From: Verrucomicrobiia bacterium | Lineage (GTDB): Bacteria; Verrucomicrobiota; Verrucomicrobiia; Verrucomicrobiales; DEV007 | Assembly (NCBI GenBank): GCA_030427505.1 | Contig: JAUICH010000001.1 | Span: 186,001-250,000 of the forward strand | Length of the DNA: 64,000 nucleotides | Reading direction: 5' to 3' | Shown here: positions 42,723 to 59,399 of the stretch, in pieces | How the letters are laid out: every line of letters starts with the position of its first letter | How positions within the stretch are numbered: the stretch's first letter is position 1 | Position numbers and translations under genes: made by a program | The notes under the pieces: model-generated | The model's database searches: none | What the model was told of the DNA's origin: nothing | What the model saw: only the letters and a program-made list of their open reading frames with translations

Positions 42723-43040
42723 GCGACTGTTCTAAGGGGAGAGTCCGCCCCGGTGCACCTATTTTTTCGGGTTTTCGACCCAGACACCAAGGCACCCGGT
42801 TCCGGATACCCAGAGCCGAAGCCGGGCCCCGTAGGGACATGACCGGTCAGGCATAGGGAAATTCCCTATAGCCCATAGGGCAATAGCAGGGTTATCCTCA
42901 TGGAGATCGCCGAATTTACGTTTTTCGTGCGATACGGCATGGTGAAGCACCGTTCGGATTCGTTTGCTGCTGCTTACTCCCAGAAATTGATCTGACCTTG
43001 GGAGACGAACGCGACGGTGGAACTTTGATCTACCCGTATC
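42723..43040. other. Divergent intergenic region with operator-like palindromes
   Basis: This 318-base gap separates the dehydrogenase operon (minus) from the 199-residue unknown gene (plus). It carries the palindrome at 42853-42869 and a plausible -10 (TTATCC, 42892-42897), listed separately, and no supported gene. Confidence 0.6.
42853..42878. promoter_or_regulatory. Operator-like palindrome ATAGGGAAATTCCCTAT with third half-site
   Basis: ATAGGGAA-A-TTCCCTAT (42853-42869) is a 17-base palindrome with 8-base arms. It overlaps a second inverted repeat, CCCTAT-AGCCC-ATAGGG (42864-42880 region), giving three regularly spaced half-sites. A -10-like TTATCC at 42892 would put the palindrome centre about 43 bases before the transcription start for the plus-strand gene, the usual place for a LuxR/NarL-family activator. 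The same 16 bases recur at 50836-50851. Confidence 0.55.
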
Positions 43041-43640
43041 ATGAATGAAAGACTCCTCCCAAACTCCGAACCGCTCGAACCGATAAGGATTCTCGCGGTT
43101 CACACGTCCGTCGAGTTCTGTAGCCGGCTGATCGAGGCCTGCGCGGATCTGAATGAGAAAGTCGAAGGATGTCATTTTGACCTGCTCTCCGCAAAAGGGC
43201 TGGCGTCCTTCCGCGTCAGGGAAATCAATCTGGCCACCCCTGGTTCCTATGTGGCGGTTCTCCTGGGGTTTTCGGATGCCGACCCCGTACCGGACGGCGT
43301 GAGACACTGGCTGCGAAACTGGTCGGAAGAGAGACGCCGGTTGAAAGCGGAAAGCCTGCTGGCCTGTCTTGCGGGGTTCACCCTCAGCCGGGATCGGGAT
43401 CAATTGTTGGAATGGCAGGAGCTGGCGGAGGAGACTTGCCAGGATCCCCTGATGGAGATGATTTGGAAGGATCTGCCGGCGGTAGCTCAGCCGGCAGGCG
43501 TGGGAACCACCATGCTAGGTTCTGGGAGAGGGCAGGCGATACGCGGTCAGGGGTTGACGGCCAGGACGCGTTCCAGATTTACCCAAACACTCAGCGCGCC
43601 CCATCCGGCGGCCGTGGCTGAGAAATCCCTGCCAAAATGA
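43041..43640 (+). CDS. Hypothetical protein of signalling island
   Basis: I do not recognise this 199-residue protein. It is cytoplasmic, with no signal or membrane segment. Residues 15-95 could be an alpha/beta fold (IRILAVHTSVEFCSRLIEAC, YVAVLLGFSDADPVPDG), perhaps a much-diverged receiver-like domain; a helical stretch rich in Arg/Glu follows (WSEERRRLKAESLLACLAGF) and the last 50 residues are low-complexity. Lack of conserved Asp residues in receiver positions argues against phosphorylation. Its stop overlaps the start of a 54-codon gene. A palindrome about 175 bases upstream suggests control by the NarL-type regulator encoded 200 bases downstream. Confidence 0.65.
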   Translation: MNERLLPNSEPLEPIRILAVHTSVEFCSRLIEACADLNEKVEGCHFDLLSAKGLASFRVREINLATPGSYVAVLLGFSDADPVPDGVRHWLRNWSEERRRLKAESLLACLAGFTLSRDRDQLLEWQELAEETCQDPLMEMIWKDLPAVAQPAGVGTTMLGSGRGQAIRGQGLTARTRSRFTQTLSAPHPAAVAEKSLPK

Positions 43641-43801
43641 CTGAAATTCTTTTCATTTCGCTATCCGCCGTTCTGATCGCGATGAACTGGGTATCCTTCC
43701 GGTTGGGAAAGACCGCTGGATACGAGCAGGGAACGCGGGATACCCGGGTGCAGATTGAAGCAGCCGCGGACCGGTTTTTCAAAAAGCTGGGCCCGAAATA
43801 G
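43637..43801 (+). CDS. Small single-span membrane protein (54 aa)
   Basis: This short gene overlaps the stop of the previous one as ATGA. It encodes an N-terminal hydrophobic helix (EILFISLSAVLIAMNWVSF) followed by a charged cytoplasmic-like tail (RLGKTAGYEQGTRDTRVQIE... ending FFKKLGPK). The overlap, the sensible helix-tail layout and the absence of any competing frame make it credible. I know of no named family. It may anchor or modulate the neighbouring unknown protein or the large sensor kinase. Confidence 0.6.
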   Translation: MTEILFISLSAVLIAMNWVSFRLGKTAGYEQGTRDTRVQIEAAADRFFKKLGPK

Positions 43802-43846
43802 AGGGCAAGTTTCTCGAATTCCGGGAACTCTGAACTGACAGTGGAA

Positions 43847-44533
43847 TTACTGAGACTCCGCCCATTTCACCGCGTAGCGAAACAGGGCGTTGCTGTCCTT
43901 GAGCTTCAGCTTTTCCCGGATCTTCGCTTTATGCGCATCCACGGTCTTAACACTGATGGAAAGTTGCGAAGCGATCTCCTTGTTACTCTTGGCCTGTCCG
44001 ATCAGTTCGAACACTTCCAACTCCCGGTCCGTCAGGAGGCCGAGGTCGGACTTGGAGCGGTCCGCCTGCGAGCCGGAGAACGCCTTGATCAGATGCTCCG
44101 CCATGTTCGGGCTGACATAAACACCGCCCTCCAGCACTTTGCGGACGGCTTTGAGGAGATTCTCCGAAGCGGCCTCTTTCATGATGTAGCCGCTGGCGCC
44201 GGCCCGGAGCGCTCGTTCCGCGTAGAGAGATTCGTCGTGCATGGAAACGACCAGAACGGACACGCCTTCGAAAAGGGCGCGAATGTCCTTAACGAGTTCC
44301 AGACCGCTTTTGTCAGGCAGCGTCAGATCGGCGATCACGAGGTCCGGCAAGTCCCGGTGCATGGAATCCAGGGCTTCGCGTGCTGACCCAGCCATGTTGC
44401 AGACTTGGATATCCGGCTGCGAATCAAGGAGAAAGACCAGTCCATCCCGCATTACCGGATGATCGTCGACGATCAGAACTTTTCGGCTGGTCGCTGTGTT
44501 TTTTTCGGAAGATGCCGTCTCTGTATTACTCAT
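43847..44533 (-). CDS. NarL/FixJ-family response regulator
   Basis: The 228-residue protein has a complete receiver domain (about 15-135): KVLIVDDHPVMRDGL with the acidic pair, LVIADLTLPDKSGLE with the phospho-acceptor Asp, VLVVSMHDESLYAERALRAGASGYIMKE with the Thr/Ser and Lys. A LuxR-type helix-turn-helix follows (LTDRELEVFELIGQAKSNKEIASQLSISVKTVDAHKAKIREKLKL). It is transcribed divergently from the large histidine kinase and, with that kinase's HisKA_3 dimerisation domain, makes a standard NarX-NarL-type pair. It is a natural candidate to bind the nearby palindromes. Confidence 0.95.
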   Translation of the reverse strand: MSNTETASSEKNTATSRKVLIVDDHPVMRDGLVFLLDSQPDIQVCNMAGSAREALDSMHRDLPDLVIADLTLPDKSGLELVKDIRALFEGVSVLVVSMHDESLYAERALRAGASGYIMKEAASENLLKAVRKVLEGGVYVSPNMAEHLIKAFSGSQADRSKSDLGLLTDRELEVFELIGQAKSNKEIASQLSISVKTVDAHKAKIREKLKLKDSNALFRYAVKWAESQ

Positions 44534-44654
44534 GCGATACGGGAAATCGGTTGGAAACCGCTAAACATTCTTACACAGTAGGCAGAGAAACGGATGCCTC
44601 GTGGGCGAAAATTAATTTGGTTAGCTCTTATAGCCTCAGGCCTAAGCGAAATTA

Positions 44655-47600
44655 GTGAGCGATAACAATCCAGCCTCCAAACGTAGTAGCGGGAAGGCTA
44701 AACGCCAAGATGAATCTTCGCGTGGAGTGAACCGGAAGCTGTCGGAAAAGACATCCGCCGGCGGGAAGCGCAAAGCCGTCCCCAAAGCGGCGAGCCGGGA
44801 CCGGCCGGAGCTGTTTCCGGTGGTGGGCCTGGGTTCTTCCGCCGGAGGTTTGGAATCCCTGCGCGAGTTCTTTTCCGCGATGCCCGCCCAGAACGGGATG
44901 GCCTTTGTGATCGTGCAGCATCTGAAGCCGGATCACGAAAGCATGCTGGGCGCCCTCCTGGCCAAGCACACCAGCATGCCAGTGGTGAGCGCCGTGGAAG
45001 GCCTGCACCTGCAACCTGACCACATCTACGTCATTTCTCCGAGGCCATTCACGATCCTGAAGCGGAACGGAAAAAAGCTGAGTTTCTCCGAGGTGACTGG
45101 CCGGATTCGAATGCCGATTGACTACTTTTTTCGTTCTTTGGGCGTGGCCTGCGAAGAGAAAGCCATCTGCATCGTGCTATCCGGAACGGGTTCGGATGGC
45201 ACCCTGGGCCTCAAATCCGTCCGGGAGACCGGTGGTTTGGTTCTGGCGGAAGATCCCTACCACGCCCAAAGCGAAGGCATGCCACGCAGCGCCATCCGGG
45301 GTGGCCTGGCGGATTTTGTTCTCCGTTCGGGTAAGATGCCGGAGGTCCTGGCCCGATACACGGCACATCCGTTCATGGGCCGCGACGGGAGCCAGGCGGC
45401 GAGCCTGACCCAGTCGTCAGATGGGTTGAAGGCGGTGTTTAACGCGCTGAATTCCCGGCCGGACTATGACTTTCGTTCGTACAAGAAAGGCACCTTGACC
45501 CGCAGGATCGAACGGCGCATGGGCTTGCTTAACTTAAAAAGCACCCACGAATACCTGCAACTGTTGCACAAAGAACCGGAAGAGTACGACCGCTTGTTTC
45601 GGGATTTGCTGATCGGAGTGACGAGCTTTTTCCGGGATCCAGAAGCGTGGACATCCCTGGGAAAACAGGTCCGGAGCGCCCTAAAAAAGAAAGAGCCCAG
45701 CGAGCCGTTTCGCGTCTGGGTGGTGGGGTGCTCCACCGGGGAAGAGGCCTATTCGGTCGCCATGGTGCTAAGCGAGCTGGTTTCCAGTCTGCATGTCGAA
45801 ACCAAACCGGTAGTGTTTGCCACGGACATCGATGAAAGAGCCATCGCAAAGGCCCGGAGTGGGCGTTACCCCTCCAGTATTAGCACGGAGTTGAGTCCGG
45901 AAAGGATCAAGGCGTTCTTTGGGCTTCACAATGAGGAGTATGTCGTTGGCAAGAAATTGAGGGAGTTGGTGGTCTTCGCCAATCAGAACGTCATTAGCGA
46001 TCCTCCTTTCTCCAATCTGGACCTGATCTGCTGCCGGAACATGCTGATCTATCTGGAGCCAAAGGTTCAAAAGAAACTGGTCGAGCTGTTTCACTTCGTC
46101 CTCGCGGAAAATGGGATGTTGTTTCTGAGCAGTTCCGAGTCCGCGGGCAGTCAGGACGGACTGTTCCGGGCTTTGACCAAGAAGCACCGGATCTACAAGA
46201 AGAAGGGAGGCAATCAGAAACGCGGTTCGAGATTCCGGACAGCGGGCTGGGAACCTCCAGCGGCGTCTGAGTTTTCCAAACGCAAATCCGCGGGACCCCG
46301 TGAGAAACGGACCAGCAGCTATCTGGAACTGGCGCGAAATGTCCTTTTGGAACGCTACGTTCCGGCCTCCGTTCTGATCGATCAGGACTTCAGATTACTG
46401 TTCTATCACGGAGCCACTGGCGACTTTCTGGAGTACCCGGCAGGTGAGCCGACAAACGATTTGAACCGGCTGATCATACCCGGATTGAGAAGCAAGCTCA
46501 TGGGCGCCATACGCCGGGTAGCCACGGACGATGCGCCCGCAACGGTAGAGCAAAGACGTTTTCGCCGTGGCCGGCAGGAGTACAACGTCACGCTGAAAGT
46601 AGAGCCCGTGGCCGGAAAAAGGGACGGAGAGAAACTGTTTCTGGTTAGTTTCACAAAGAAGGAACCCCCGCTTCGCGAGGCCAAGGAGCTTGTCGTGCCG
46701 GAAGAGTTGGATGTGGTGGCGGATGGCATTGTTTCGCAGTTGGAATACGAGCTGAAAGCCACCCGCGAGGATTTGCAGAGTACGATTGAGGAAGTGGAAG
46801 CCTCGAACGAGGAGCTAAAAGCCTCGAATGAAGAGATCATTTCGATGAATGAAGAGCTCCAGTCAGCGAATGAGGAACTGGAGACGTCCCGGGAAGAACT
46901 TCAAAGCCTGAACGAAGAGTTGGGCACGGTGAACAATGAGTTGGAGGCGAGCGTCCAGGAGTTGGAGTCCGCCAACAATGACATGAACAACCTGCTGAGC
47001 AGTACCGACATCGCGACGGTATTTCTGGATCAGGATTTTTGTATCCGGCGCTACACTCCGGCGGTCAACGAACTGATGAGCCTGATACCCTCCGACATCG
47101 GCCGTCCGTTCAGCGACATCGCCCTGAGGTTTAAGGATGAGAGGCTCATGGACGACGCACGGAAGGTGCTTGAGAAACTCACCCCGATAGAAAGCCAAGT
47201 CACCAATACTGAGGGGCGGTCCTTCGTGCGCCGCATTCTGCCCTACCGCACGGATGACAACCGGATACCAGGCGTCGTGGTAACCTTCACGGACATTACG
47301 GAGGTTCACGGAGCGCTGGAGCGGCTCAGGATCCGAGAACATCAGCAGGCGCAGGTTTCCCATTTGGGCCGCCTGGCATTGAGCAATGCTCCCGTGCCGA
47401 ACCTGATCCGCGAGGCGGCGAAGGAACTGGCAGAGTCTCTGCCCGTGGACTTTACCAAGATCCTGGAACTCCTGCCAGACGGCAAAGAACTGCTGCTCCG
47501 CGGAGGAGTGGGGTGGAAGCGGGGAATGGTGGGCCGCGTCAAGATCAGCACCGACTTGAGTACTCAAGCCGGCTACACGCTGGAATCCAGCCGGCCGGTA

Positions 47601-50600
47601 ATCGTCACGAACCTGGCCAAGGAAACCCGGTTTCGAGGACCGAAACTGCTGGCGGACCTTGGCATCGTGAGTGGTATGAGTGTCATCATTCCCGGACATG
47701 GCCGCCCCTGGGGAGTGCTGGGCGTGCACGCGCGGACGCAAACGGACTTCACCTTGGACGACGTTCACTTTCTGCAGTCCGTGGCCAACATTCTTTCCGA
47801 TGCTATTCTGCGCCAGCGGGCGGACCAGAAAGTGCGGGAAAGCGAGAAACGCCTGCGCCTGGTGACGGACTCGCTTCCGGTGCTGGTGTCATATTGTGAC
47901 AGAGATCTGAACTACCGGTTTTGCAATGCGGCTTATGAAGAGTGGTTTGGCATCGGCCGGGAGGAAATGATAGGAAGAAACGTTCGCGAAGTTCTCGGCC
48001 AGAAGGCCTTCGAGTCGCTTGAGCCGATCATGGCCGCAGTGCTCCGTGGCGAGCGTCAATCTCTGGAAAGAGAAATTCCCTACCGGCACTCCGAACCCAA
48101 GTTTGTCCACATAGACTACATCCCGGACCAGACGGAAAACGGACGGGTGGAAGGGTTCTATGTCATGGTTCAAGACCTGACGGAGCGGCGAAGGGCGGAA
48201 GAAGCCACCAACCGCCTGGCGGCCATTGTGGTGGATTCAGAAGATGCGATCTATAGCAAGGACCTGAGCGGAACTATCACCAGTTGGAACCTGGGCGCAG
48301 AGCGGATTTACGGGTACGCCGCGGAGGAGGTAATCGGGAAAAAGGCCACCATGCTGATTCCCAAGGAACGCCGTACAGAGGTCAATCAGATGCTCAAGAA
48401 GATCGCCGAAGGCGGCCGGGTGGCTCACCACGATACCCTCCGCCTCCGGAAAGATGGAACGCTGGTCCACATCTCCATCGCGTTCTCTCCCATCCGGTCA
48501 AAAGATGGCGAGACAACCGGGGCTTCGATTGTGGCCCGCGACATTACAGACCGGGTGGAAGCCGAACGGCTCCTCAAGGAGAACCGGGCGCGGTTGGCCC
48601 AGGTAATGGCCAGCATCAGCGATGCGTTTCTGTCTTTCGACGAAGAATGGCGATACACTTTCATTAATGATACCGCCGAAAAGCTTCTCGGCGCCTCGGC
48701 GGACACTTTGCTGGGTAGGGGGATCTGGGAGGGGCTGGTAGAGAAGGAGGCGGCGCCATTCTTCGAGGCCATGCAGGCGACACGCGCGACTGGTGAGGTC
48801 AGAGATGTAGAGGCGTTTTATCATCCCACTCAGCGCTGGTACTCCTGCCGCTGCTATCCGCGGGATGAGGGGGGAGTCTCCGTGTACTTTCAGGACCAGA
48901 CCGAGGAGAGGCGGGCCAAGAGCGCTTTGCTGGAGAGCGAAAGGCGGTTCCGGAAAGCGCTGGAGGATGCCCCGTTGCCCGTGGCTGTCATCGCGGATGA
49001 CGGAGAGCTCCTGCTGGTGAGCCGGCAGGTGTGGGAGATCACGGGTTTCCAGCCGGAAGACCTTCCAGACTTGCAAGCCTGGGTGTCTCTGGTCAAAGAG
49101 TTCGGAGCGAAACAACGCCAGACGGCGGAAGGACTGATCGAACAGTTGTTTAGTCAAACTGAGCCTCAGGAGAACGGAATTCATCGTGTGCCGGTCAAGG
49201 GCGGCGACGTTCGCCACTGGCAGGTGTTCACCTCTCCTCTGGGGCCGGGCCCGGACGGGAGGAAGCTGATCGTCACGATGGCCCACGACATCACCGAGCA
49301 GCGCATTACGGAAGAGCGCCTCCGGCTGGCGTTGGTGGGGGGTGAGATGGGCATTTTTGAAGTGGATGTTCAGTCCGGGCACTGCACTTTCGACAGCAAG
49401 GTGACCGAGCTGCTTGGCTTTGATTCAACGGTTAGCGAGTGCAAGCTCGAAGAGTTTGCCGCCCGGATTCATCCGGAAGATCAGGAGAACTGGAAGGCTG
49501 CCGCCGGCCTGGTACTCAGCGGCAAAGGGGACTACGACGTTGAATTCCGCTACCTGAGGCCGGATGGCAGAGCGATCTGGTTGGCTGGAAAAGGGCTTTC
49601 TGTTGGCGGCACGGACGATCATTCCCTGCGCTGGGTGGGAATCAATTATGACATCACTGCACGGAAGGAGATCGAACAGGAGCTGCGCGAACTGAATCGC
49701 CATCTGGAGCATCGGGTGGAGGAGCGTACGGCAGAGCTGGCGGAGCGCGAAGACGTTTTGGATTCCATCATTCAAACCGCGGCGGATGGCATCATCAGCG
49801 TATGCGCTCAGGGTAAGATATTGAGCTTCAACAATGCCGCGCGAGAAATGTTTGGGTATCAAGACAAGGAAGTGATTGGGATGCCGGTGGAGCGCCTTTT
49901 TATAGCCGGTCTGGGCAATGACATGAAGTCTTTGCTCCGTCGCTGGAAGCGGAACAGTGAACAGGAGCTGGTAATTGAGCGCGGGGAAGGGGAGGCGATC
50001 GGAGCCAGTGGTACCGGGTTTCCGGTGGAGTACGTGATCAGCCAGTCACCTTCGCGCTCCATGGTGATCCTGATTGTCCAGGACATCTCCCAGCGCCGGA
50101 GGCTGGAACAGGAAGTGTTCCGGGCCAGCGAAGAAGAGAAAGAACGCATTGCCGCGGACCTGCACGACAACATGGGCTCCATGTTGAGCGGCATTGATTG
50201 CCGGGTGGAAGTGCTGCGCGGAAAGCTGGCGGCACAGAACCTCGCGGAACGGGAAGAGATTGAGAAAATTTCCTCTTTAGTGAAAGAAGCGATTTCCCAG
50301 TCCCGGGAATTGGCTCACGGATTGCATGCCCTGGGCATGGAAGAAGGCGCCTTGATGAACGCACTGCGCCAGTTCGCGGAACGCCTCAAGGCCAACCACC
50401 GGATGAGCAGCCGGTTCCATTGCCCCGAGAAGGTGGAAGTGAAAAACCCCTTTGTTGCCAACCACCTGTTCCGGATTGTGCAGGAAGCTTCAAACAACGC
50501 CATCAAGCACAGTGGTTGTACCCGCATCACGGTGGGAATCCGGGCCGATGAAGACCGGGTGGTGGTGACCGTGAGGGACAACGGAACCGGATTCAACCGG

Positions 50601-50762
50601 GAGAAAGTTGAGGGCGATGGCATCGGTCTGGATATCATGCGGTACCGGGCGAATGCCATCCGCGGGACGATAACGGTCCAACCCCGGAAACAGGGCGGAA
50701 CGGAGGTCATTTGTTCCGTTCCCATGGCCGTCTGCCAGGACCCCGGCAAGCTTGCCAATTGA
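44655..50762 (+). CDS. CheB-CheR-PAS/GAF-HisKA_3 histidine kinase (2035 aa)
   Basis: The start codon is GTG 44655. Domain order: CheB methylesterase (about 54-240; SSAGG nucleophile Ser near 61, His 89, SGTGSDGTLG Asp 181); CheR methyltransferase (about 260-515; GVTSFFRDPEAW, VVGCSTGEEAYSVAM, ICCRNMLIYL); a long coiled coil (about 690-780); PAS; GAF (about 920-1070); five or six further PAS/PAC domains; a short coiled coil; a final PAS; HisKA_3 with phospho-acceptor His in ADLHDNMGS (residue 1837); and HATPase_c (EASNNAIKHS, DNGTGFN, GDGIGLDIM). No receiver or transmembrane helix is visible, so it is cytoplasmic. It most likely phosphorylates the divergent NarL-type regulator. CheB and CheR catalytic residues are all present. 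Confidence 0.95.
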   Translation: MSDNNPASKRSSGKAKRQDESSRGVNRKLSEKTSAGGKRKAVPKAASRDRPELFPVVGLGSSAGGLESLREFFSAMPAQNGMAFVIVQHLKPDHESMLGALLAKHTSMPVVSAVEGLHLQPDHIYVISPRPFTILKRNGKKLSFSEVTGRIRMPIDYFFRSLGVACEEKAICIVLSGTGSDGTLGLKSVRETGGLVLAEDPYHAQSEGMPRSAIRGGLADFVLRSGKMPEVLARYTAHPFMGRDGSQAASLTQSSDGLKAVFNALNSRPDYDFRSYKKGTLTRRIERRMGLLNLKSTHEYLQLLHKEPEEYDRLFRDLLIGVTSFFRDPEAWTSLGKQVRSALKKKEPSEPFRVWVVGCSTGEEAYSVAMVLSELVSSLHVETKPVVFATDIDERAIAKARSGRYPSSISTELSPERIKAFFGLHNEEYVVGKKLRELVVFANQNVISDPPFSNLDLICCRNMLIYLEPKVQKKLVELFHFVLAENGMLFLSSSESAGSQDGLFRALTKKHRIYKKKGGNQKRGSRFRTAGWEPPAASEFSKRKSAGPREKRTSSYLELARNVLLERYVPASVLIDQDFRLLFYHGATGDFLEYPAGEPTNDLNRLIIPGLRSKLMGAIRRVATDDAPATVEQRRFRRGRQEYNVTLKVEPVAGKRDGEKLFLVSFTKKEPPLREAKELVVPEELDVVADGIVSQLEYELKATREDLQSTIEEVEASNEELKASNEEIISMNEELQSANEELETSREELQSLNEELGTVNNELEASVQELESANNDMNNLLSSTDIATVFLDQDFCIRRYTPAVNELMSLIPSDIGRPFSDIALRFKDERLMDDARKVLEKLTPIESQVTNTEGRSFVRRILPYRTDDNRIPGVVVTFTDITEVHGALERLRIREHQQAQVSHLGRLALSNAPVPNLIREAAKELAESLPVDFTKILELLPDGKELLLRGGVGWKRGMVGRVKISTDLSTQAGYTLESSRPVIVTNLAKETRFRGPKLLADLGIVSGMSVIIPGHGRPWGVLGVHARTQTDFTLDDVHFLQSVANILSDAILRQRADQKVRESEKRLRLVTDSLPVLVSYCDRDLNYRFCNAAYEEWFGIGREEMIGRNVREVLGQKAFESLEPIMAAVLRGERQSLEREIPYRHSEPKFVHIDYIPDQTENGRVEGFYVMVQDLTERRRAEEATNRLAAIVVDSEDAIYSKDLSGTITSWNLGAERIYGYAAEEVIGKKATMLIPKERRTEVNQMLKKIAEGGRVAHHDTLRLRKDGTLVHISIAFSPIRSKDGETTGASIVARDITDRVEAERLLKENRARLAQVMASISDAFLSFDEEWRYTFINDTAEKLLGASADTLLGRGIWEGLVEKEAAPFFEAMQATRATGEVRDVEAFYHPTQRWYSCRCYPRDEGGVSVYFQDQTEERRAKSALLESERRFRKALEDAPLPVAVIADDGELLLVSRQVWEITGFQPEDLPDLQAWVSLVKEFGAKQRQTAEGLIEQLFSQTEPQENGIHRVPVKGGDVRHWQVFTSPLGPGPDGRKLIVTMAHDITEQRITEERLRLALVGGEMGIFEVDVQSGHCTFDSKVTELLGFDSTVSECKLEEFAARIHPEDQENWKAAAGLVLSGKGDYDVEFRYLRPDGRAIWLAGKGLSVGGTDDHSLRWVGINYDITARKEIEQELRELNRHLEHRVEERTAELAEREDVLDSIIQTAADGIISVCAQGKILSFNNAAREMFGYQDKEVIGMPVERLFIAGLGNDMKSLLRRWKRNSEQELVIERGEGEAIGASGTGFPVEYVISQSPSRSMVILIVQDISQRRRLEQEVFRASEEEKERIAADLHDNMGSMLSGIDCRVEVLRGKLAAQNLAEREEIEKISSLVKEAISQSRELAHGLHALGMEEGALMNALRQFAERLKANHRMSSRFHCPEKVEVKNPFVANHLFRIVQEASNNAIKHSGCTRITVGIRADEDRVVVTVRDNGTGFNREKVEGDGIGLDIMRYRANAIRGTITVQPRKQGGTEVICSVPMAVCQDPGKLAN

Positions 50763-50835
50763 ACCCGTACCGGGGGGATTGAAGGCATAGTGTCTTTGTC
50801 AGGGGGCGGTAGATTCGCCACCCGGATCGGGCATC

Positions 50836-50851
50836 ATAGGGAAATTCCCTA
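50836..50851. promoter_or_regulatory. Second copy of operator-like palindrome ATAGGGAAATTCCCTA
   Basis: The 16 bases are identical to those at 42853-42868, and a TAGG-type third half-site (GTTAGGCGG) lies at the same 7-base spacing after CCCTA. It begins 74 bases after the kinase stop codon. There is no annotated gene directly downstream on either strand, so its target is unclear. Confidence 0.5.
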
Positions 50852-51253
50852 GATCTGTTAGGCGGTTGGAGGGGGACCTGACGGTCACCACCCCCAATTG
50901 AGACAACCGAAGAATTCGACGATAGATTGCTCGTTGGTTTTGGTAGACCTGAGTTGTTGAATAATGAGATCCAGAGGCACCAGTCTTTCGCGTAGCGGCC
51001 GAGCACATTCCTGGCTCGGCTTCGTGGAGATTGGCCAAAGTTTTCCGTGCCAGGGACTCAGGGTGGCCGGTGATATTACAGAAGAGGAACGTTCTTGCAC
51101 CCACGTTCCCGCTGAGTTGGGCCTCACCGGCCCACCCCCCTGGCATGGTTTACAACAGGGACGTTGAGTTGCCTCCCATCGTCCTCCCAAATACCTGCTC
51201 CGCCCTCGTTCTTCCCATCCCTGAGGGCGGAGCGGGTAGGGCGGGAGACAAAG

Positions 51254-51273
51254 CCCCTGAACTGGGGTTTTTT
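51254..51273 (+). terminator. Weak terminator-like hairpin with T-run
   Basis: CCCC-TGAACT-GGGG is followed directly by TTTTTT on the plus strand. The stem is only four G-C pairs, and it lies about 490 bases after the kinase stop, so its use is doubtful. Confidence 0.3.
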
Positions 51274-51313
51274 GCGTTTAGGGGGGCTTGGCGTGCTGGC
51301 TGAGGTTTCCGCC

Positions 51314-51345
51314 AGACAAGGAGACAAGGAGACAAGGAGACAAGG
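51314..51345. repeat. Four perfect tandem copies of AGACAAGG
   Basis: Four contiguous 8-base units lie at 51314-51345. They are followed closely by the 3' end of the pbpC gene on the other strand. The array is too short and unspaced to be CRISPR. It is a microsatellite that could vary in copy number. Confidence 0.8.
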
Positions 51346-51395: not shown

Positions 51396-53705
51396 TTAGA
51401 GGGTTTCTACCTCGATGTTGACGCTGGCCTGGTGGCCGGAGGCGGTGTCTCTGACTCTGAGTTCGTGGCGGCCGGGTTGAAGGATGACGAAGGGGAGGCT
51501 GCCGGACGCGTCGATTTTCAGGGTGGGGGACGTCCACTCCAGGGGGCCGGAAGCGTTGGCTTTCAGGGGCAGCAGGCTGCCGTTTCGGGGAAGGTCCGCG
51601 TCCAGGTAGGCGACGGTGCCGTCTGGCGGGCTCAGGATTTCAATGGAGGGCATCCTGGAGTCTTCCGCGGAGGGCTTGGCGGCAAAGACGCGATTGGCGA
51701 GGAATTTTCCCTGGCTTGAAAGCCAGGTGGCGTACTCCGCCGGAAGAAGGGAGCGGCTGCTTTCGTCATAGTCCTCCGCCGTGGCGGTCTTGGGTTCCCG
51801 GCCGGGACGATACCACTCGGTCAAACGATGGCGGGCGGGAAGTCCGGCTGAAACGGTTTTACCGGTAAGGGCATCGATTTCGTGGCTGACCAGCGTGGCG
51901 GGCCGTTCATACCAGCCGGGTTCGCGAGCTTCGTAGAGGTGCTGGAAAATGTTCTGAAAAACCGGTCCCGCGCCACTGACGCCGCTGACATTGCGCAGGG
52001 GGGTATTTTCAAAACTGCCCACCCAGACCCCCACGGTAAATTCCGGGGTAAAGCCGACGGTCCAGTTGTCACGGTAGTCAGTGCTGGTGCCGGTTTTGCA
52101 GGCCACGCGGAAAGGAAATCGCAGCGGAGAATAGGCGCCGAAGGTTCCGGAACGGGCATTGTTGTCGCTGAGGATGTCCGCGATGAGGTAGCAGTCCGTG
52201 GCGGAAAACCGGCGGACCGGATTGGACCCGGTGGCCTGGTCGCGGAGCAGGCGGAACTCCTGGTATTCGCCCAGGCGGGCCAGGCAGGCGTAGGCGTTGG
52301 TAAGTTCCAAGAGGCGCACCTCGGCATTTCCAATGGTCAGCCCTAGCCCGTAGCGATCTGGGTCGGCGGCCAGCGTGGAGATGCCCAGTTCCTGGAGCTT
52401 GCCGTAGAGGAGGTGATGGCCGCCGATGTCGTGGAGCAGGCGGACGGCGGGAACATTCAGGGAACTGGCCAGAGCTTCGCGAAACCGGACGGGGCCGCGG
52501 AAGCGCTTGTCGTAATTCTCCGGCCGGTAAACACCATCCAAAGAACTGCCGTATTCCACCGGCAGATCGGCCAGAAGGCTGGAAGCGTGGTAGTCACCCC
52601 GCTGCATGGCCAGGAGGTAGGTAAAGGGCTTCAGGGTGGACCCCGCGGAGCGGGCCGCCCAGGCACCATTTACCTGGCCGGAAAGACCGTCGAAGAAATT
52701 CCGCGAGCCCACCAGGGTCAGCACCTCGCCGGAGGGGTTGTGCATGACCACGGCGGCCCCCTGGAGATGCGTGGCCTTTCCAGTGACTTCCTGCAGCCGG
52801 CCCAGTTCCAGGGCCAGGGTGTTTTCCACAAAGGTCTGCAGCGGCAGGTCGATGGTGGTGCGAACGATGGGCGTGTCCGCCGGGGCGGATTTTCCGCTCA
52901 ATACCAGGTCCACAAAGTGCGGGGCGCGGAACTCCCGGTAGCCTCCATCCACGAGGAGAATGGATTCCTCGAAGGCCCGTTGGTATTCGTCCTCCGTGAT
53001 GAAGCCCAGGTGGCGCATGTCGCCTAAGATCTTTTCCTGCCGTTCCTTGGCGCCTTCGAAATTGCGATACGGGTTCAGGCGCGTGGGGGCGTTGGGCAGG
53101 GCAGCCAGGAAGGCGGACTCCGCCACGCTCAGATCGGACAACGGTTTGTTGAAGTAACCCCGGGCGGCTGCACGGCAACCAGTGAGAAGATTTCCGTAGG
53201 GCAGGCGATTGAGATAAGCGGCGAGGATGTCTTCCTTTTCCCAGGTCATCTCCAGCTTCCGGGCCAGCACGATCTCCCTAACCTTCGTCGGGATGGAGCG
53301 TCGTCTCGGTGGGGAGGAGATCTTGATAAGTTGCTGGGAAATGGTGGAACCGCCGGACATGAAGTGGCCGTGCTGAGCAAACTCAAAAAACACCCGGGCC
53401 ATGGCCTGCAGGTCCAGGCCGTTGTGGCTCCAGTAGCGCCAGTCTTCCGCGGCCACGGTGGCGTTGATCAAGTTTTCCGGCAGTTCATTGAAGGTGACGG
53501 GCCGGCCGGTGCGGAGATCGTCGGCATTGAGCAACTTTCGCAAAGGCCGCCCCTCCCGGTCGGTGAACTCCGTCGCCGCCGGAGAGGGATTTACCAGGTT
53601 TTCCGGCAGCGAGCAGAAGGGCGGCACGACGTAAACGGCCACGACATAGGCCGCCAGACCCAGGAGGGCGAGGCGGAAGATGAGGCGGCGCAGTCTGCGG
53701 ATCAT
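51396..53705 (-). CDS. pbpC: Penicillin-binding protein 1C
   Basis: This bifunctional class A PBP of 769 residues has an N-terminal membrane anchor (LALLGLAAYVVAVYVV), a GT51 glycosyltransferase domain (about 45-230; AAEDWRYWSHNGLD, GGSTISQQLIK, KLEMTWEKEDILAAYLNRLPYG), a transpeptidase domain (about 290-600; SAGSTLKPF with the acyl-Ser, ASSLNVPAV, CKTGTS), and a C-terminal BiPBP_C Ig-like domain (about 675-769). Length and order match E. coli PbpC. In many bacteria pbpC sits beside the alpha-2-macroglobulin gene, as here 231 bases away, consistent with repair of the cell wall when the envelope is breached. Confidence 0.95.
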   Translation of the reverse strand: MIRRLRRLIFRLALLGLAAYVVAVYVVPPFCSLPENLVNPSPAATEFTDREGRPLRKLLNADDLRTGRPVTFNELPENLINATVAAEDWRYWSHNGLDLQAMARVFFEFAQHGHFMSGGSTISQQLIKISSPPRRRSIPTKVREIVLARKLEMTWEKEDILAAYLNRLPYGNLLTGCRAAARGYFNKPLSDLSVAESAFLAALPNAPTRLNPYRNFEGAKERQEKILGDMRHLGFITEDEYQRAFEESILLVDGGYREFRAPHFVDLVLSGKSAPADTPIVRTTIDLPLQTFVENTLALELGRLQEVTGKATHLQGAAVVMHNPSGEVLTLVGSRNFFDGLSGQVNGAWAARSAGSTLKPFTYLLAMQRGDYHASSLLADLPVEYGSSLDGVYRPENYDKRFRGPVRFREALASSLNVPAVRLLHDIGGHHLLYGKLQELGISTLAADPDRYGLGLTIGNAEVRLLELTNAYACLARLGEYQEFRLLRDQATGSNPVRRFSATDCYLIADILSDNNARSGTFGAYSPLRFPFRVACKTGTSTDYRDNWTVGFTPEFTVGVWVGSFENTPLRNVSGVSGAGPVFQNIFQHLYEAREPGWYERPATLVSHEIDALTGKTVSAGLPARHRLTEWYRPGREPKTATAEDYDESSRSLLPAEYATWLSSQGKFLANRVFAAKPSAEDSRMPSIEILSPPDGTVAYLDADLPRNGSLLPLKANASGPLEWTSPTLKIDASGSLPFVILQPGRHELRVRDTASGHQASVNIEVETL

Positions 53706-53759
53706 GGCGAGGCGGGTGTGGGTGGGTGGAAGTGAGGTGGCGGAAGCTGGGGAGCGGGT

Positions 53760-53891
53760 GGGGACGTGACTGTCAGACCATCGGACTATCAGATTTTGGG
53801 AGGGGATACGGGTAATCGAAGTCTTACGTTTCTTTTCTTACTAGAATCTTCTGAAAGTCCGATGGTCTGACAGTCTGATTGTCACGTCCCC
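53760..53891. repeat. Long inverted repeat between the alpha-2-macroglobulin gene and pbpC
   Basis: The left arm (53760-53792; GGGGACGTGACTGTCAGACC then ATCGGACTATCAG) is the reverse complement of the right arm (53851-53891; ending GTCACGTCCCC), except for an extra 8-base AATCAGAC in the right arm and one mismatch. The loop is about 58 bases and AT-rich. The arms contain repeated TCAGAC words. It resembles a MITE-like or hairpin-forming element; it may also separate the two transcripts. Confidence 0.75.
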
Positions 53892-53936
53892 TCGGCGTCC
53901 AGTGTCCAACCCAGCCGTCCGGCCACCCAGGGCCAC

Positions 53937-56900
53937 TCACCGGTTGGTGGGTGGCGTGGGGGCAGGAGCCGTGGCGAGTTGAGCGGCCGGGTCCTTCAGG
54001 GGCTGGCTCGTGAAGATCTCCGCCGCGGAAAGGCCGTAGCGCTCCGGTTCGTACATGGCTTCCACCTTGGCGGGTGGCGCCATGACCGTGCCGGCGGAAA
54101 CGACGCGGGCCAGGTAATTCACCTGGTATTTGCCTTTCTCATAGATGTAGTCGGCAAAGAACAGGGCCCGGTCTTTCCGAAGTTCGCGGAAGTTGCAGTA
54201 GAGGGTGTTCCTGCTGTCCGTGTCCGGCGCGTCCTGAGCCGCGCGTGAGGTGAACTCCGGGTTCACGGCTTCCAGCACGGCGGGGAGAGGATCGTCGATC
54301 GCCAGGTAGTACTGCTTGCCGTCCGTGGTGATTTCCAGGGAGACCTGAACCAGGTCGCCGACCTGGAGATCCGTGGCAGGGCTTAGGTCGCCGGTTTGGT
54401 TTACCTTTTGGTAAGCGCGGTGGATCTTGAACCCGCGCTCCACAGCCTCCACGGGGTTGACCTTCGGACGGCTTTCCACTTCCACATGGGCATAGACCGG
54501 CATGCCGGTGCTGGTTTCCAACTGCATGGGCTTGTTCCGGAGATCTCCGGAGAAGGGGAAGCTGAATTCGCCGCTTTGCAGCGCATTACCGAAGTCCAGT
54601 TGCCGCGTCTCGCCCTGGAACCGCAGGGTGATGGTGCTTGCTTCCAGATCCTTGGCGGTGGCTTCCGAGTAGCGGGAGAGCGCCAGGAGCGGCCAGGCAT
54701 TGCTGTAGGTGCTGCCCCAGCCCCGATGAGGGCCACGCTTGTTGATGAGAGACCGGATCAGGTCCGTTGTGGCGGGATCCATCGGGTCCAGAAGCGTCCA
54801 GGCCAGTATCTGGGTGGAGTCCGTGTAAACGTCCTTGTACCAGGGAACGTTCTGGCCGGGTGCTTTACTGGAATTGTCCAATAGGACGAGCACCTGGTTT
54901 TTCACTTTTTCCGCGCCCTGGCTTTCCAGCATGGCGGCCGCAAGCAGGGCGCGCGCTTCGCGGGGCAGGATCTGACGTTTCTTGTAGAGAACGTCGTAGT
55001 AAGCAGGCTCCGCCTTTCCGGCCAGGGCCAGGGTGTAGAGGGCCAGGCAGCGTTGGGAGAGATCGTAAGCGTCATCGATGTCACCCGTGTTGCGAAGAGC
55101 GGAAGACAGGTAACGCCAGAGCTCGCTCAAGCGGTACTCCGGAAGTTCGAATCCGGCTTGCTGTGCCATGGCCAGCGCCATGCCCCCGTAGGCACTGCCC
55201 CAGAGCATGGGCTCCGTACCGCCGGGCCAGTAACTGAGCCCGCCCTCGGCCGTCTGCATGCTGAGAAGGCGGTTGGTGCCGTGGGCGATCGCTTTTTTCA
55301 CTTCCTCTTCCGGCTTTTTCAGAGAGGGAACTGCATCGCGCAAGGTGAAGGTGGAAAGCCACGGCAGGGTACTGGAGGTGGTTTGCTCCACGCAGCCGTA
55401 GGGATAGTGGAGGAGATAGTCCAGCGCGTCCTCCGCTTCCAGCAAGAGGGAGTTGGAGAACGTGACACGGACGGAACCTTCGCCATTGAGCAGGCGATCT
55501 TCGATGGACGCCAGCGCATTCGCCTGGGCCTCGGTATTCTTGAAGGTCAGGTTCTTCGTGGCCCGCAATATGGGCACGGGGTAGCCGATTCGCAGAGTCG
55601 ACTCCGTGCGGTCCGACAGGCTCTCGTCCGTCAAACTTCGCGCGTTCCAGAGCCACTTGGCGTCGCCGGTTTCCAGGGCGCGGATCTTGAAGGCGATGTT
55701 CTTGGATTCTCCCGCCGCGATGTCCATCGCGGTCCGCCGGGTCATGGCGTCAACAATGCTGCCATTCGCGTCCGGGCTGGTGGGCTGGATGGGGAAGGGT
55801 TCGCTGACGAACTCCGCTTTGCTGTCGAGCACGATTTCCAATTCCACTCGCTGCGGCTGATCGGTCTGGTTGTGGACGATGCCCTGGAGCAGGATCTCGT
55901 CACCGACATTGGAGAAGGCAGGGAGCGAAGGCTCGAACATCAGCGGCTTGTTCACCACCAGGCTGGATTCTCCGTTGCCGAACTGGCCACCCGGGCCGTT
56001 GGCGACCGCCATGATGCGGTATTCGCTGAGGCTGTCCGGCACGGTGAAGGTAGCGGTGACCACGCCGTTTTCGTCCGAGACGAGCGAACCGTTCCAGTAG
56101 GCCACGGGACGGAAGTCTTTCCGGCGCTTCGGCATCATGCCGTCTTCACCGCCGCCGCCAATGACGTAGCCCTTGTTCCCGAAGACCAGGTCTTCCGGGG
56201 ATTCCGGCAAGAGGTCGCTGATGGACTGGCCAGTAAAGACCTGGAGGGGGAAGGGCGCCCGCATCGTGTGGAAGGGATCGGGCGTTTCGTAACCGGCAAT
56301 CTGCAGGACGCCTTCATCCACCACGTAGAGGGTAACCTCCGTGTTCGGAAGTGGCTTGTCCTCGCCCGTCATTACGGTGGCTTTCAGGGTGACTTCGTCT
56401 CCGGGCCGCACGCTGTCTTCCGGAGCGTCGATGTTGACGTGGAGTTCCTGGGACGGGTCAGCGACCTCCAACTGGCAGTAGCCGATGCGGTAGTCTGTGT
56501 TGGGATGATCGTGGGTGCTGTTTTCCAGGCCGCGGACGACCATGACGGAAACGAACACATTGGGCGACAGGTCTTTGTCGATCGGGATTTCGATGAGGTT
56601 CGACTTGCCGTCGAGCGGCCGGGTAAAGACCTTGCGGACTCCGGCGCGTTCCACTGTCACGAGGGCGGAACCTTCAATCTGGCTCTTCACGAGGAGCTTG
56701 GCCGTTTCGCCCGGCAGATAGGTTTCCTTGTCCGGAGTCACTTCGAGACGCATGCCATCGTCTTGTTCCCAAGTGAATTCGTCACGCTCTTCGGCGACAT
56801 AGACCTCGAACCGGATCCGGCTCAACACGGGGTGACCGGCTTCGTCTTCGGAAGTGAGAGTGGCGATGTAGTTGCCGGGCTTGGTGGCGGTAAAGCCGAG

Positions 56901-59399
56901 CGCGGCGGTCAGCGGAGCTTCGTCTTCCGGATGATCCGCCGGCGTGGCGGGAATGACGACCTGTTCGTTTAGGAAGGACTCCAGCTTGCGCTCATTGCGG
57001 CTGGTGATGGCGCCGCCCGTGCCTTTGACCTTGTAGGTGATCCACTCCTCTTTTTCGATCAAGAGCGAGGCCGTGGTTTCCTGGCCGCGGGCGGAACCGT
57101 CGGCATTCACCGCGACGAAGGCGAAAGGAATCTCCGCTCCCGTCATGACTTGATAGGGCAGGTCTCGGATGCCGAGGTAGTAGCTGGAACTTTGCACCGT
57201 GGTGGAGACCGACTCCGCCAGAGTCTGCTGGTTCAGGTCCGTGATTTCCACGCTCATGCCCACGCGGCAGGGGCCAGGGCTGGGGGTGTCTTCCACCGCG
57301 GGCAGCGCGATTTCGACGGAGGATTTTCCCTGGCCGTCCAGAGTGACCGTGCCCGAAGACGTGATGGGCGCCTCGTAAGGCAGGGTGCGGTCGCCAAACT
57401 GGAAGTTCGAGTAGCTCTCCGGATGGAACCCTTCTTTGTAGATGGCGGCATACCAGTTGAGGTCGGCTTTGCTGAGATGCTTGCCCATGAGGTAACGGGC
57501 GGAGACGTCCATCTTGATGGAATCCACCGCGGTGACTTCGTCCGGCGTGTCCAGGCTGATCTCGAAAGTGTTGGGCCGGTATTCCGCCAGTTGGAAAGAG
57601 TGCGAGTAGATCTTGCTGTAGTCCCGGTCATCGGGCTCGACGTTGCCGTTGAAGTCGATTTCGGCGTAGTACCAGCCCAGGGGTTCCTCGGGAAGTTTGA
57701 CTTCCGCTTCCAGGCTGCCGCGCGCCGAAACATCAATGAGGCGTTCTTCGACCGTGCGGTGCTGGGGATCGTACACCCGCAGCATGGCGGTGGCGCCCTG
57801 GCCGTTGTCTGGAGACAAGAGACTGTCGCCATCGGTCTGGCGGGTAATGGCTTTCAGGTGGAGCGTCTCGCCCGGTTTGTAGAGAGGCCGGTCGCTGAAG
57901 ATGAAACAACGGCGGTCCGGGTTGCTTTTCGTGACTTGCTCCCAGGAATAAGAAATGTCGAAGGCCCAAGGGTAGATGTTGTACATGCCCTCGGTGAAAG
58001 GAATGGCGTGGATCTCCGCGCCTTTCCGGGCCTGGATCCAGTGCCGGGTCTCGGTGGATACTCCAGCGGTGGGGATGGTGGCGACGCCTTGATCGTTCGA
58101 ACGCGTGGCGTGCAGGGAGCGGTAGTCTTCGTCAAAGAGATTGATCGTCACGCCAGGCAGCGGGTCGCCAGTCTTGTAGGAAAAGGCGTAAACCGTGAGG
58201 GCTTCCGCCTCCTGTTTCCAGGCCAAGCCGATGTCCGAGAGCTGGACAATGCACTGCGCGCCGGCGTGCCGGTAGACGTTTTTGTCTTTTCCTTCCGCGC
58301 AGAGGTAGACGGCCCCAGGCGAGCTGTCGCCCAGGACTTCATCCCAGTTCAGGGTGACCACTTCGGTTTCATCCACACCGGCGGAGATTTCGAAGTCTTT
58401 TGAAAAGATGGTGGCGCCCGGCACCATGTCGAAGGGGATGCTGCGCGAGGAGCCCCAGCCTTCATAGGCCTCATACCCGCGCATGGCGAAGAGGAGTTCC
58501 CGGGCGGTCAGTTTCTTAACTTTAACGGTTACGGATTCCAGGTTGCCGGTCTGGATTTCGAACTGGCGGTGGCCGTTGCGGTTCTGAACGGTTTCAAAGG
58601 CCGGAAGGGCCACGAAGCCGTCATTCGGGGTGAAGGTGACTTCCTTCTTCACCGCGTCATTCAGCATGGTGAGGTCCCGGGCGATGATGCCGGGCTTTAC
58701 GCTAACGTGGTAGGGCTCGCCAAATTTGAAGCTGCCGGAATAGTAAGCCGCGCTGCCGCTGACCGAGAGACTGAGGTCCTCAGGGGCGGGCGACAGGCTG
58801 AGGTATTCCTTAAGCGTCTCCGCGTTGAACTCCTCGTGGAGAGATTTGTTGAAGTAAACGGCCACCTGGCGTTCGCCATCGAAGGGGTTCGAGGCCTCGA
58901 TGTTGTAGACCGAGAATTTCCGGATCGTGCCCAGCCAGATCAGGCTGTCACTGGAAAGGGCGTGGGATTTGTTCTCGCTGGCGAGGCCTTCATTCAGGGT
59001 CAGTTGCCAGTAGTCTCCGGGGGGCAATGGGCTGAGGGGCTGGACGCGGAGGTAGAGACTGGCATCGACTCCGTTGGCGCCTTCCGAGGCGCGATCCTGG
59101 GCCACCAGCATCTGGAGAATCTCTTCCTCCGTGGGCTGGCTGACGGCGGCGGGCACCTGACGGTGTTCGCGGTCGGTAAAGACCAGCTTTGCCTTGGCGG
59201 CAGCCAGGGGGACCGGCGCGTTGAAGCGAAGATACAGCTCGGGCGACGTGGTGAGGTTGTCTTCCCAGAAGTGGCTGGGGTATTGGACGTAAGTCAGGGG
59301 CTGGGTTTCCCCTGAAGGAGGGGCCGCGTCCGGCGCCTCCTGCGCCAAGAGAGAGGTGGCGATAAGAAGCGGTGCCAGCGCAAGGGTGTGGATTTTCAT
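53937..59399 (-). CDS. Bacterial alpha-2-macroglobulin family protein
   Basis: This secreted 1820-residue protein traps proteases in the periplasm. A signal peptide (MKIHTLALAPLLIATSLLAQE) without a lipobox precedes a string of MG and beta-sandwich domains, including the MG2-like SDRPLYKPGETLHLKAITR. The alpha-2-macroglobulin core (YWNGSLVSDENGVVTATFTVPDSLSEYRIMAVA) is followed by the thioester domain with GCVEQ (Cys 1336, Gln 1339 form the thioester). An alpha-6/alpha-6 region (YWPGGTEPMLWGSAYGGMALA) and a C-terminal receptor-like domain complete it. E. coli YfhM is about 1650 residues, so this one is somewhat longer. It lies upstream of pbpC on the same strand, the usual arrangement. Confidence 0.95.
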   Translation of the reverse strand: MKIHTLALAPLLIATSLLAQEAPDAAPPSGETQPLTYVQYPSHFWEDNLTTSPELYLRFNAPVPLAAAKAKLVFTDREHRQVPAAVSQPTEEEILQMLVAQDRASEGANGVDASLYLRVQPLSPLPPGDYWQLTLNEGLASENKSHALSSDSLIWLGTIRKFSVYNIEASNPFDGERQVAVYFNKSLHEEFNAETLKEYLSLSPAPEDLSLSVSGSAAYYSGSFKFGEPYHVSVKPGIIARDLTMLNDAVKKEVTFTPNDGFVALPAFETVQNRNGHRQFEIQTGNLESVTVKVKKLTARELLFAMRGYEAYEGWGSSRSIPFDMVPGATIFSKDFEISAGVDETEVVTLNWDEVLGDSSPGAVYLCAEGKDKNVYRHAGAQCIVQLSDIGLAWKQEAEALTVYAFSYKTGDPLPGVTINLFDEDYRSLHATRSNDQGVATIPTAGVSTETRHWIQARKGAEIHAIPFTEGMYNIYPWAFDISYSWEQVTKSNPDRRCFIFSDRPLYKPGETLHLKAITRQTDGDSLLSPDNGQGATAMLRVYDPQHRTVEERLIDVSARGSLEAEVKLPEEPLGWYYAEIDFNGNVEPDDRDYSKIYSHSFQLAEYRPNTFEISLDTPDEVTAVDSIKMDVSARYLMGKHLSKADLNWYAAIYKEGFHPESYSNFQFGDRTLPYEAPITSSGTVTLDGQGKSSVEIALPAVEDTPSPGPCRVGMSVEITDLNQQTLAESVSTTVQSSSYYLGIRDLPYQVMTGAEIPFAFVAVNADGSARGQETTASLLIEKEEWITYKVKGTGGAITSRNERKLESFLNEQVVIPATPADHPEDEAPLTAALGFTATKPGNYIATLTSEDEAGHPVLSRIRFEVYVAEERDEFTWEQDDGMRLEVTPDKETYLPGETAKLLVKSQIEGSALVTVERAGVRKVFTRPLDGKSNLIEIPIDKDLSPNVFVSVMVVRGLENSTHDHPNTDYRIGYCQLEVADPSQELHVNIDAPEDSVRPGDEVTLKATVMTGEDKPLPNTEVTLYVVDEGVLQIAGYETPDPFHTMRAPFPLQVFTGQSISDLLPESPEDLVFGNKGYVIGGGGEDGMMPKRRKDFRPVAYWNGSLVSDENGVVTATFTVPDSLSEYRIMAVANGPGGQFGNGESSLVVNKPLMFEPSLPAFSNVGDEILLQGIVHNQTDQPQRVELEIVLDSKAEFVSEPFPIQPTSPDANGSIVDAMTRRTAMDIAAGESKNIAFKIRALETGDAKWLWNARSLTDESLSDRTESTLRIGYPVPILRATKNLTFKNTEAQANALASIEDRLLNGEGSVRVTFSNSLLLEAEDALDYLLHYPYGCVEQTTSSTLPWLSTFTLRDAVPSLKKPEEEVKKAIAHGTNRLLSMQTAEGGLSYWPGGTEPMLWGSAYGGMALAMAQQAGFELPEYRLSELWRYLSSALRNTGDIDDAYDLSQRCLALYTLALAGKAEPAYYDVLYKKRQILPREARALLAAAMLESQGAEKVKNQVLVLLDNSSKAPGQNVPWYKDVYTDSTQILAWTLLDPMDPATTDLIRSLINKRGPHRGWGSTYSNAWPLLALSRYSEATAKDLEASTITLRFQGETRQLDFGNALQSGEFSFPFSGDLRNKPMQLETSTGMPVYAHVEVESRPKVNPVEAVERGFKIHRAYQKVNQTGDLSPATDLQVGDLVQVSLEITTDGKQYYLAIDDPLPAVLEAVNPEFTSRAAQDAPDTDSRNTLYCNFRELRKDRALFFADYIYEKGKYQVNYLARVVSAGTVMAPPAKVEAMYEPERYGLSAAEIFTSQPLKDPAAQLATAPAPTPPTNR

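What the first reader, a model, noticed from the sequence alone, without database searches (positions are those of the whole stretch)
42850..50855. Self-contained signalling island bounded by two copies of one palindrome
ATAGGGAAATTCCCTA occurs at 42853 and 50836, bracketing a 2035-residue CheB-CheR-PAS histidine kinase, a NarL-type regulator, an unknown 199-residue protein and a 54-residue membrane peptide. Both copies carry a third TAGG half-site at the same spacing. At the first, a -10-like element puts the palindrome at about -43, the classical position for LuxR-family activators. This could be an autonomous regulatory system with its own operator. It is my best candidate for an undescribed system.
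Basis: partly seen in the sequence, partly recalled or inferred. Interest (0 to 1): 0.68.

Follow-up and report, generated by a model that had tools for sequence, protein, structure and literature searches.

The report
Private operator pair of bacterial regulator
Two identical short DNA palindromes around a bacterial signalling gene pair look like the private switch sites of that pair, one in front of two small genes and one in front of a stretch with no evident protein gene; their layout follows a rule seen beside related regulators, which makes the switch testable.

Summary
TAGGGAAATTCCCTA occurs exactly twice in the 6.41-Mb genome, both here, both with a third TAGG 22 bp on. It is best read as the operator of the NarL-type regulator at 43847-44533, not as an island boundary. 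Beside related regulators a 15-bp palindrome of the same 7-1-7 build lies just 3' of the gene: 17 cases in 145 stretches, against 0-2 at other gaps, often before an AraC-type gene. A promoter-like element lies 44-47 nt past the palindrome; a matrix trained without the window sites has its best hit at +44 at both. Of 10 matches to palindrome plus element in 95 genomes, 8 precede an AraC-type gene, 4 of these being training sites. The window seems a rewired member: TACG half-sites became TAGGG, and the AraC target is replaced by an orphan 199-residue gene with a 54-residue membrane peptide (site A) and a 0.5-kb stretch without evident gene, ending in a terminator (site B), a candidate regulated RNA. 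Binding is inferred, not shown.

The parts
42854..42868 (+). Site A: 15-bp 7-1-7 palindrome TAGGGAAATTCCCTA, proposed operator
   Evidence: build
42876..42880 (+). Third half-site of A (TAGGG), 22 bp from the first; proposed second-dimer contact near -41
42909..42920 (+). Promoter-like element of A (GCCGAATTTACG); GAATTT starts 44 nt after the palindrome; transcription start estimated near 42924
43041..43640 (+). Orphan 199-residue protein, inferred target of A
43637..43801 (+). 54-residue peptide with one hydrophobic stretch (by eye), start overlaps the stop of the previous gene (ATGA)
43847..44533 (-). NarL-type response regulator (receiver + GerE)
44655..50762 (+). 2035-residue CheB-CheR-PAS/GAF histidine kinase, divergent from the regulator; presumed partner
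50837..50851 (+). Site B: second identical palindrome
50859..50863 (+). Third half-site of B (TAGGC)
50892..50903 (+). Promoter-like element of B (CCCCAATTGAGA); CAATTG starts 44 nt after the palindrome; start estimated near 50907
50907..51273 (+). Candidate non-coding transcript of site B; no coding signature, strong predicted structure mainly from its 3' hairpins
51250..51273 (+). Intrinsic-terminator-like stem and T run

Best explanation
A two-component system with its own operator. The CheB-CheR-PAS/GAF kinase (signal unknown) is presumed to phosphorylate the divergently encoded NarL-type regulator; the phosphorylated dimer binds TAGGGAAATTCCCTA (7-1-7 inverted repeat), a second dimer leans on the third half-site two helical turns on, and together, at about -63 and -41, they activate two rightward promoters whose core element is [CG]AATT. 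Promoter A makes the 199-residue orphan protein and the 54-residue peptide; promoter B makes a transcript of about 370 nt without an evident protein gene. Shown: rarity and place of the sites, the shared 7-1-7 build beside related regulators, the element at the same distance at both sites. Inferred: binding, phosphorylation, activation rather than repression, pairing of kinase and regulator, start sites, transcription of B.
For: Exact palindrome only twice in the genome, 0.98 kb 3' of the regulator gene and, past the kinase, 6.3 kb from it. TASGNAAATTNCSTA has five exact places in the genome: these two, one each 343 and 79 bp past the paralogous regulators at C6:562833 and C19:75136, and one (C50) without such a neighbour. 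In 65 regulator regions (587 kb, window included) TA[CG]G-Nn-C[CG]TA gives 27 at n=7 and 0-9 at each other n from 1 to 15. In 145 stretches of 450 bp 3' of family regulators, TA-ended 7-g-7 palindromes number 17 at g=1 and 0-2 at g=0 and 2-8; without the TA rule there is no peak (288 against 258-296). G008, with the same divergent regulator/CheB-CheR order, has three such sites in 13.7 kb. A matrix for the element from nine sites (seven of relatives, two of own paralogues, window left out) has its best of 89 positions at +44 at both window sites, scores reached by 5 and 54 of 127,978 window positions. Palindrome plus element: TAGG form, two places in the own genome, both here; TACG form, 10 places in 95 genomes, 8 before an AraC-type gene, 7 of these also beside a family regulator; 4 of the 8 were training sites, so 4 of 6 new places fit.
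Against: No binding or expression data. 128 of the 145 stretches show no such palindrome, and the window itself is not among the 17: its site A is 0.98 kb from the regulator and points towards it, where relatives' sites mostly point away. The composite patterns are not rarer in reversed controls: TACG 10 against 14, TAGG 34 against 60 by my count of the table, own genome 2 against 1; placement, not number, is the evidence. The element was first noticed in a set that included both window sites, and the nine training sites are those of 23 that show it. It is not found by the matrix at the three G008 sites, L123, L125 and L140, and ranks first at +22 in L184; the reverse side of B has a hit of 7.6 at +21, close to B's own 8.3. 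In 80 loci across phyla the spacing peak is weak (20 against 4-15). The third half-site is found at 5 of 25 sites, two of them the window's. B's element has G, not T, as its sixth base.
Confidence: 0.72

Rival explanations
1. Site A is a working operator, site B a duplicated relic or decoy without a transcript of its own; the structured stretch after the kinase is only a terminator region.
For: No coding signature after B; between convergent genes terminators are expected, and without them the fold is only moderately better than shuffles (z -2.68, against -6.75 with them); B's element is weaker than A's (8.3 against 12.8) and hardly better than a hit of 7.6 on its other side.
Against: B keeps the palindrome letter for letter, the third half-site at the same spacing and the element at the same +44; 487 nt lie between kinase stop and terminator.
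Confidence: 0.4
2. The palindrome belongs to another regulator, and its nearness to this one is incidental.
For: Binding is not shown; the genome has 31 matches to this regulator, so related proteins could bind.
Against: Only two exact copies in 6.41 Mb, around this regulator and kinase; two paralogues have TACG palindromes of their own beside them.
Confidence: 0.15
3. The two direct repeats are borders of a mobile or inserted island.
For: Direct copies, 28 nt at 82%, 7,983 bp apart.
Against: The four genes between them are none of integrase or transposase kind by the Pfam scans made; GC 0.574 against 0.600 of the window; outside the operator features the two flanks are not alike.
Confidence: 0.04
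4. The sites repress rather than activate.
For: NarL both activates and represses (PMC4549865, passages).
Against: The proposed positions lie upstream of the core element, as for activators (inference).
Confidence: 0.15

Closest known systems
NarL (E. coli) and its 7-2-7 sites
   Same: Same protein family (PDB 1a04 is the second match of the profile search); inverted heptamers, engineered narG site TACCCCTAAAGGGGTA (PMC4549865, passages).
   Different: Spacer of 1 instead of 2, so 15 bp; half-site TAGGGAA here and TACGCAA beside two paralogues; a different kind of kinase input part.
NreC (Staphylococcus)
   Same: Response regulator that binds a GC-rich palindromic region (PMC8139620, one passage); that its half-site is of TAGGG type is recalled, from no call.
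   Different: Other phylum, kinase and targets; spacing not compared.
MctR (NCBIfam NF052445)
   Same: Best-scoring NCBIfam model of the regulator (159.6 bits).
   Different: Far below the cut-off of 300, so not a member.
GacA with its upstream activating sequence before rsmY/rsmZ
   Same: A response regulator with a palindrome (TGTAAG-N6-CTTACA) that switches on small RNAs (PMC4950607, passages): the analogy for site B.
   Different: Other palindrome, 18 bp; the RNA at B is unproven and no RsmA role is implied.
Regulator + AraC-type gene pairs of Verrucomicrobiota (found here)
   Same: Same operator build and element; two such pairs in the own genome (L129, L130).
   Different: No AraC-type gene at the window's operators; half-site TAGG instead of TACG; CheB-CheR kinase.

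Membership tests
NarL/FixJ-type response regulator | Receiver domain with acidic pocket and phosphorylation Asp, plus GerE helix-turn-helix | tested here: met
   PF00072 2.1e-26, PF00196 3.8e-16; D23, D24, D69, K119 invariant in 18 sequences
NarL/FixJ-type response regulator | Binds an inverted repeat as a dimer | not testable with these tools
   Only association of palindrome and gene
NarL proper | 7-2-7 site | tested here: not met
   Window spacer is 1; among related regulators gap 1 has 17 cases, gap 2 has 2
NarL proper | Score above the NCBIfam NarL cut-off | tested here: not met
   135.7 against 250
MctR | Score above the NCBIfam cut-off | tested here: not met
   159.6 against 300
Histidine kinase of the HisKA_3 class | HisKA_3 and HATPase_c domains | tested here: met
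   PF07730 2.4e-10, PF02518 2.1e-17
Regulator-operator-AraC module | 7-1-7 palindrome with promoter-like element at +44 to +47 | tested here: met
   Both window sites, left out of the matrix, though included when the element was noticed
Regulator-operator-AraC module | Operator within 450 bp 3' of the regulator gene | tested here: not met
   Site A is 0.98 kb away, B 6.3 kb
Regulator-operator-AraC module | AraC-type gene after the operator | tested here: not met
   Orphan gene after A, no evident gene after B
Mobile island | Integrase or transposase between the repeats | tested here: not met
   Pfam scan of the four genes between them

The most novel reading that the evidence does not exclude
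Site B is the promoter of a regulator-controlled structured RNA of about 370 nt, so that one Verrucomicrobiota two-component system drives a protein pair and a small RNA from two identical private operators, having left an ancestral TACG operator and AraC-type target by a change of half-site together with changes in the recognition helix (HKAK in place of HRAH).
Probability: 0.35. Interest if true: 0.65.

Novelty: new variant of a known kind. Interest (0 to 1): 0.47.

Why it matters
It turns one pair of palindromes into a rule that can be tried elsewhere: beside a fraction of NarL-type regulators of this group the operator can be read off as a 7-1-7 palindrome just past the gene, with a promoter-like element about 44 nt on. 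Half-sites differ between paralogues in one cell (TACGC twice, TAGGG once), a natural set for asking how related regulators avoid cross-talk. I found no printed description in the searches made: exact operator strings (11 papers, all by the shortest string only, unrelated by their titles), PocR with regulators, Verrucomicrobia regulons (0 papers). I saw listings only, and only open-licence papers could be searched.

Tried and rejected
Exact TAGGGAN1-3TCCCTA in 57 genomes: 8 with a match, the own genome included; of the other seven I looked at the genes around the two G053 places only and saw no family regulator by eye. So the letters are not conserved; the relation appeared only with the TACG form in G008. 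C50:258439 as a further target: doubtful, because the matrix finds no element there; C45:65777 (one mismatch) was looked at and not pursued. 199-aa protein: no relative in genome contigs; in 95 genomes only its own and a 28% match with stops in G006 at E 9e-4, discarded; with its first 120 residues, none in 387 phylum genomes but its own; PDB hits to ferritin at E 0.27 and above taken as chance; AlphaFold from one sequence gave pLDDT 48, an alternating strand/helix pattern at best, not searched further. Rfam: nothing at gathering scores in the window; at site B only microRNA hits far below cut-off. Site B stretch elsewhere in 37 genomes: only its 8-bp tandem repeats match, in the own genome. 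A one-residue code between recognition helix and half-site: not evident, kept as a lead. L262 and L288 (other phyla) carry repeated TAGG palindromes; not used as support for the window, though L288 and L248 are among the 17.

Bias to state: the 25 sites were chosen by hand, oriented towards the nearest likely gene, and contain close relatives (L177/L178/L179; L156/L193; L188-L190); the shuffles there keep base content only. One search's spacing count includes loci fetched by palindrome and is not used as evidence; one search is. The binomial values treat related sites as independent and are not used. AraC-type genes were found with a profile of my own from eight such genes; only six were scanned with Pfam.
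Full report
The palindrome is at both stated places, and its 15-base core has no other exact place in the 6.41-Mb genome. Both copies carry TAGG 22 bp after the first half-site, and no other place in the genome has palindrome plus third half-site with fewer than 2 mismatches. Genes are as described: a 2035-aa kinase with CheB, CheR, PAS, GAF, HisKA_3 and HATPase_c domains, a NarL-type regulator on the other strand, and two short ORFs without family match that overlap as ATGA. By the record titles of related loci the window belongs to Verrucomicrobiota; the genome itself is unnamed.

The exact TAGGG palindrome is not generally shared: TAGGGAN1-3TCCCTA is in 8 of 57 genomes, the own one included. 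The relation appears when the third base is let free. Genome G008 is one of 12 of 54 genomes with a CheB-CheR match; there too regulator and CheB-CheR gene are divergent, though that protein has about 1,060 residues and a second, unscanned ORF of 800 residues follows. Its 13.7-kb contig has three palindromes, two TACG-N7-CGTA and one TACG-N7-CCTA. In the own genome TASGNAAATTNCSTA has five exact places: A and B; two that lie 343 and 79 bp past paralogous regulators, 55% and 52% identical to the window's; and one on C50 without such a neighbour.

Spacing is the control. In 65 regions around family regulators, half-sites TA[CG]G and C[CG]TA are found 27 times at a spacing of 7 and 0 to 9 times at each other spacing from 1 to 15. 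With the letters free except TA, 145 stretches of 450 bp 3' of regulator genes give 17 palindromes of 7-1-7 build and 0 to 2 of any other gap from 0 to 8; without the TA requirement there is no peak (288 against 258-296). Fifteen of the 17 are from the own genome and its relatives, two (L248, L288) from other phyla; 128 stretches have none, and the window's own regulator is not among the 17. So the build recurs in the family while inner letters differ: TACGCAA, TACTGGA, TAGAGGA, TAGTGTT, TACGAGA. In 80 loci of wider phyla the spacing peak is weak (20 against 4-15).

What follows the operator in relatives is often an AraC-type gene: at 10 of the 23 non-window sites, nine by profile and L179 by likeness. 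Of six scanned, all have AraC domains and four a PocR domain over its cut-off. A strict search found 17 regulator-AraC pairs (16 distinct; L215 and L140 agree in contig length and result), 8 of the 17 with TASG-N7-CSTA between them; 13 of the 16 have a 7-1-7 palindrome by the rule. Two such pairs are in the own genome. The window has no AraC-type gene at A or B; after A come the orphan gene and the membrane peptide, and A points towards the regulator, not away from it.

A promoter-like element recurs past the palindrome: AAT[TA] starting at +45 to +47 in 10 of 25 sites, both window sites included, with no shuffle of 5,000 as good; the third half-site at the window's spacing in 5 of 25, p 0.0002. 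A matrix built from nine sites that show it (seven of relatives, two of own paralogues, window left out) puts its best hit at +44 at A (12.8) and at B (8.3); further sites left out, L139, L176, L182, L195, L164, give 44 to 47; L140, the three G008 sites, L123 and L125 do not, and L184 ranks +22 first and +43 second. On the reverse side A has nothing above 1.9, B a hit of 7.6 at +21. Only 5 and 54 of 127,978 window positions reach the scores of A and B. In relatives whose palindrome has other half-sites (L139, L176, L182, L195) the element stays CGAATTT or CGGATTT, so it is more likely core promoter than another regulator site.

I then searched palindrome plus element in 95 whole genomes. TACG form: 10 matches in 9 genomes; 8 directly before an AraC-type gene, 7 of those also beside a family regulator. 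Four of the eight were training sites, so of six new matches four fit (L295, L297, L300, L304) and two do not (L298, L299). The reversed control has 14 matches, 8 of them in genera g16 and g17, so number alone proves nothing; placement does the work. TAGG form: 34 matches, two in the own genome, which are A and B; the reversed control has 60 by my count of the table, one in the own genome. Thirty of the 34 came with a locus; only the window locus has a family regulator in it, and none has the AraC-type gene.

Site B lacks a credible gene: two ORFs after it show no codon-position signature (GC 0.62/0.60/0.54 and 0.57/0.56/0.57, against 0.62/0.41/0.71 for the kinase). The stretch 50907-51280 folds at -168.6 kcal/mol, z -6.75, and 51121-51300 has the lowest z of 355 windows of 180 bases on the + strand, but that is the terminator hairpins; 50907-51140 alone has z -2.68. 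A regulated RNA is therefore possible, not shown. No Rfam family reaches its gathering score.

The recognition helix of the window regulator reads VKTVDAHKAKI, where relatives with TACG operators mostly read RTVDAHRAHI; two relatives with HKTRI were seen, one of them with TACGGAAATCCCCTA 854 bp away. This fits a change of specificity but proves none.

Verdict: a real operator-like pair private to this locus, best read as belonging to its NarL-type two-component system and as a rewired form of a module seen in the group; the RNA at B and the orphan protein are the open parts.

Noticed in passing
window 51314-51345: AGACAAGG tandem repeats; the same unit matches 19 other listed places of this genome and nothing in 36 relatives.
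   Followed up: no
window 51396-59399: Penicillin-binding protein gene of 1C type (Transgly, Transpeptidase, BiPBP_C) next to an 1820-residue ORF that by eye resembles a bacterial alpha-2-macroglobulin (not scanned).
   Followed up: no
L122:2815-5251: In G008 two proteins with Host_attach matches follow the operators, and a 153-residue protein that by eye resembles the start of the PocR-type proteins but has no Pfam match.
   Followed up: partly
L288:5232 and 7316: Candidatus Magnetominusculus: two identical TAGGTAATTTCCCTA copies bracket one gene beside a regulator, with a shared ACCGATTGTAT stretch about 40 nt after each.
   Followed up: no
L262:4440 and 10001: Two identical TAGGGGACATTCCTA copies with similar flanks, probably a dispersed repeat.
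   Followed up: no
G000 C8, C13, C28 contig ends (L008, L009, L011): TAGGTAAATTCCCTC lies within 85 bases of three contig ends, as expected of a repeat that broke the assembly.
   Followed up: no
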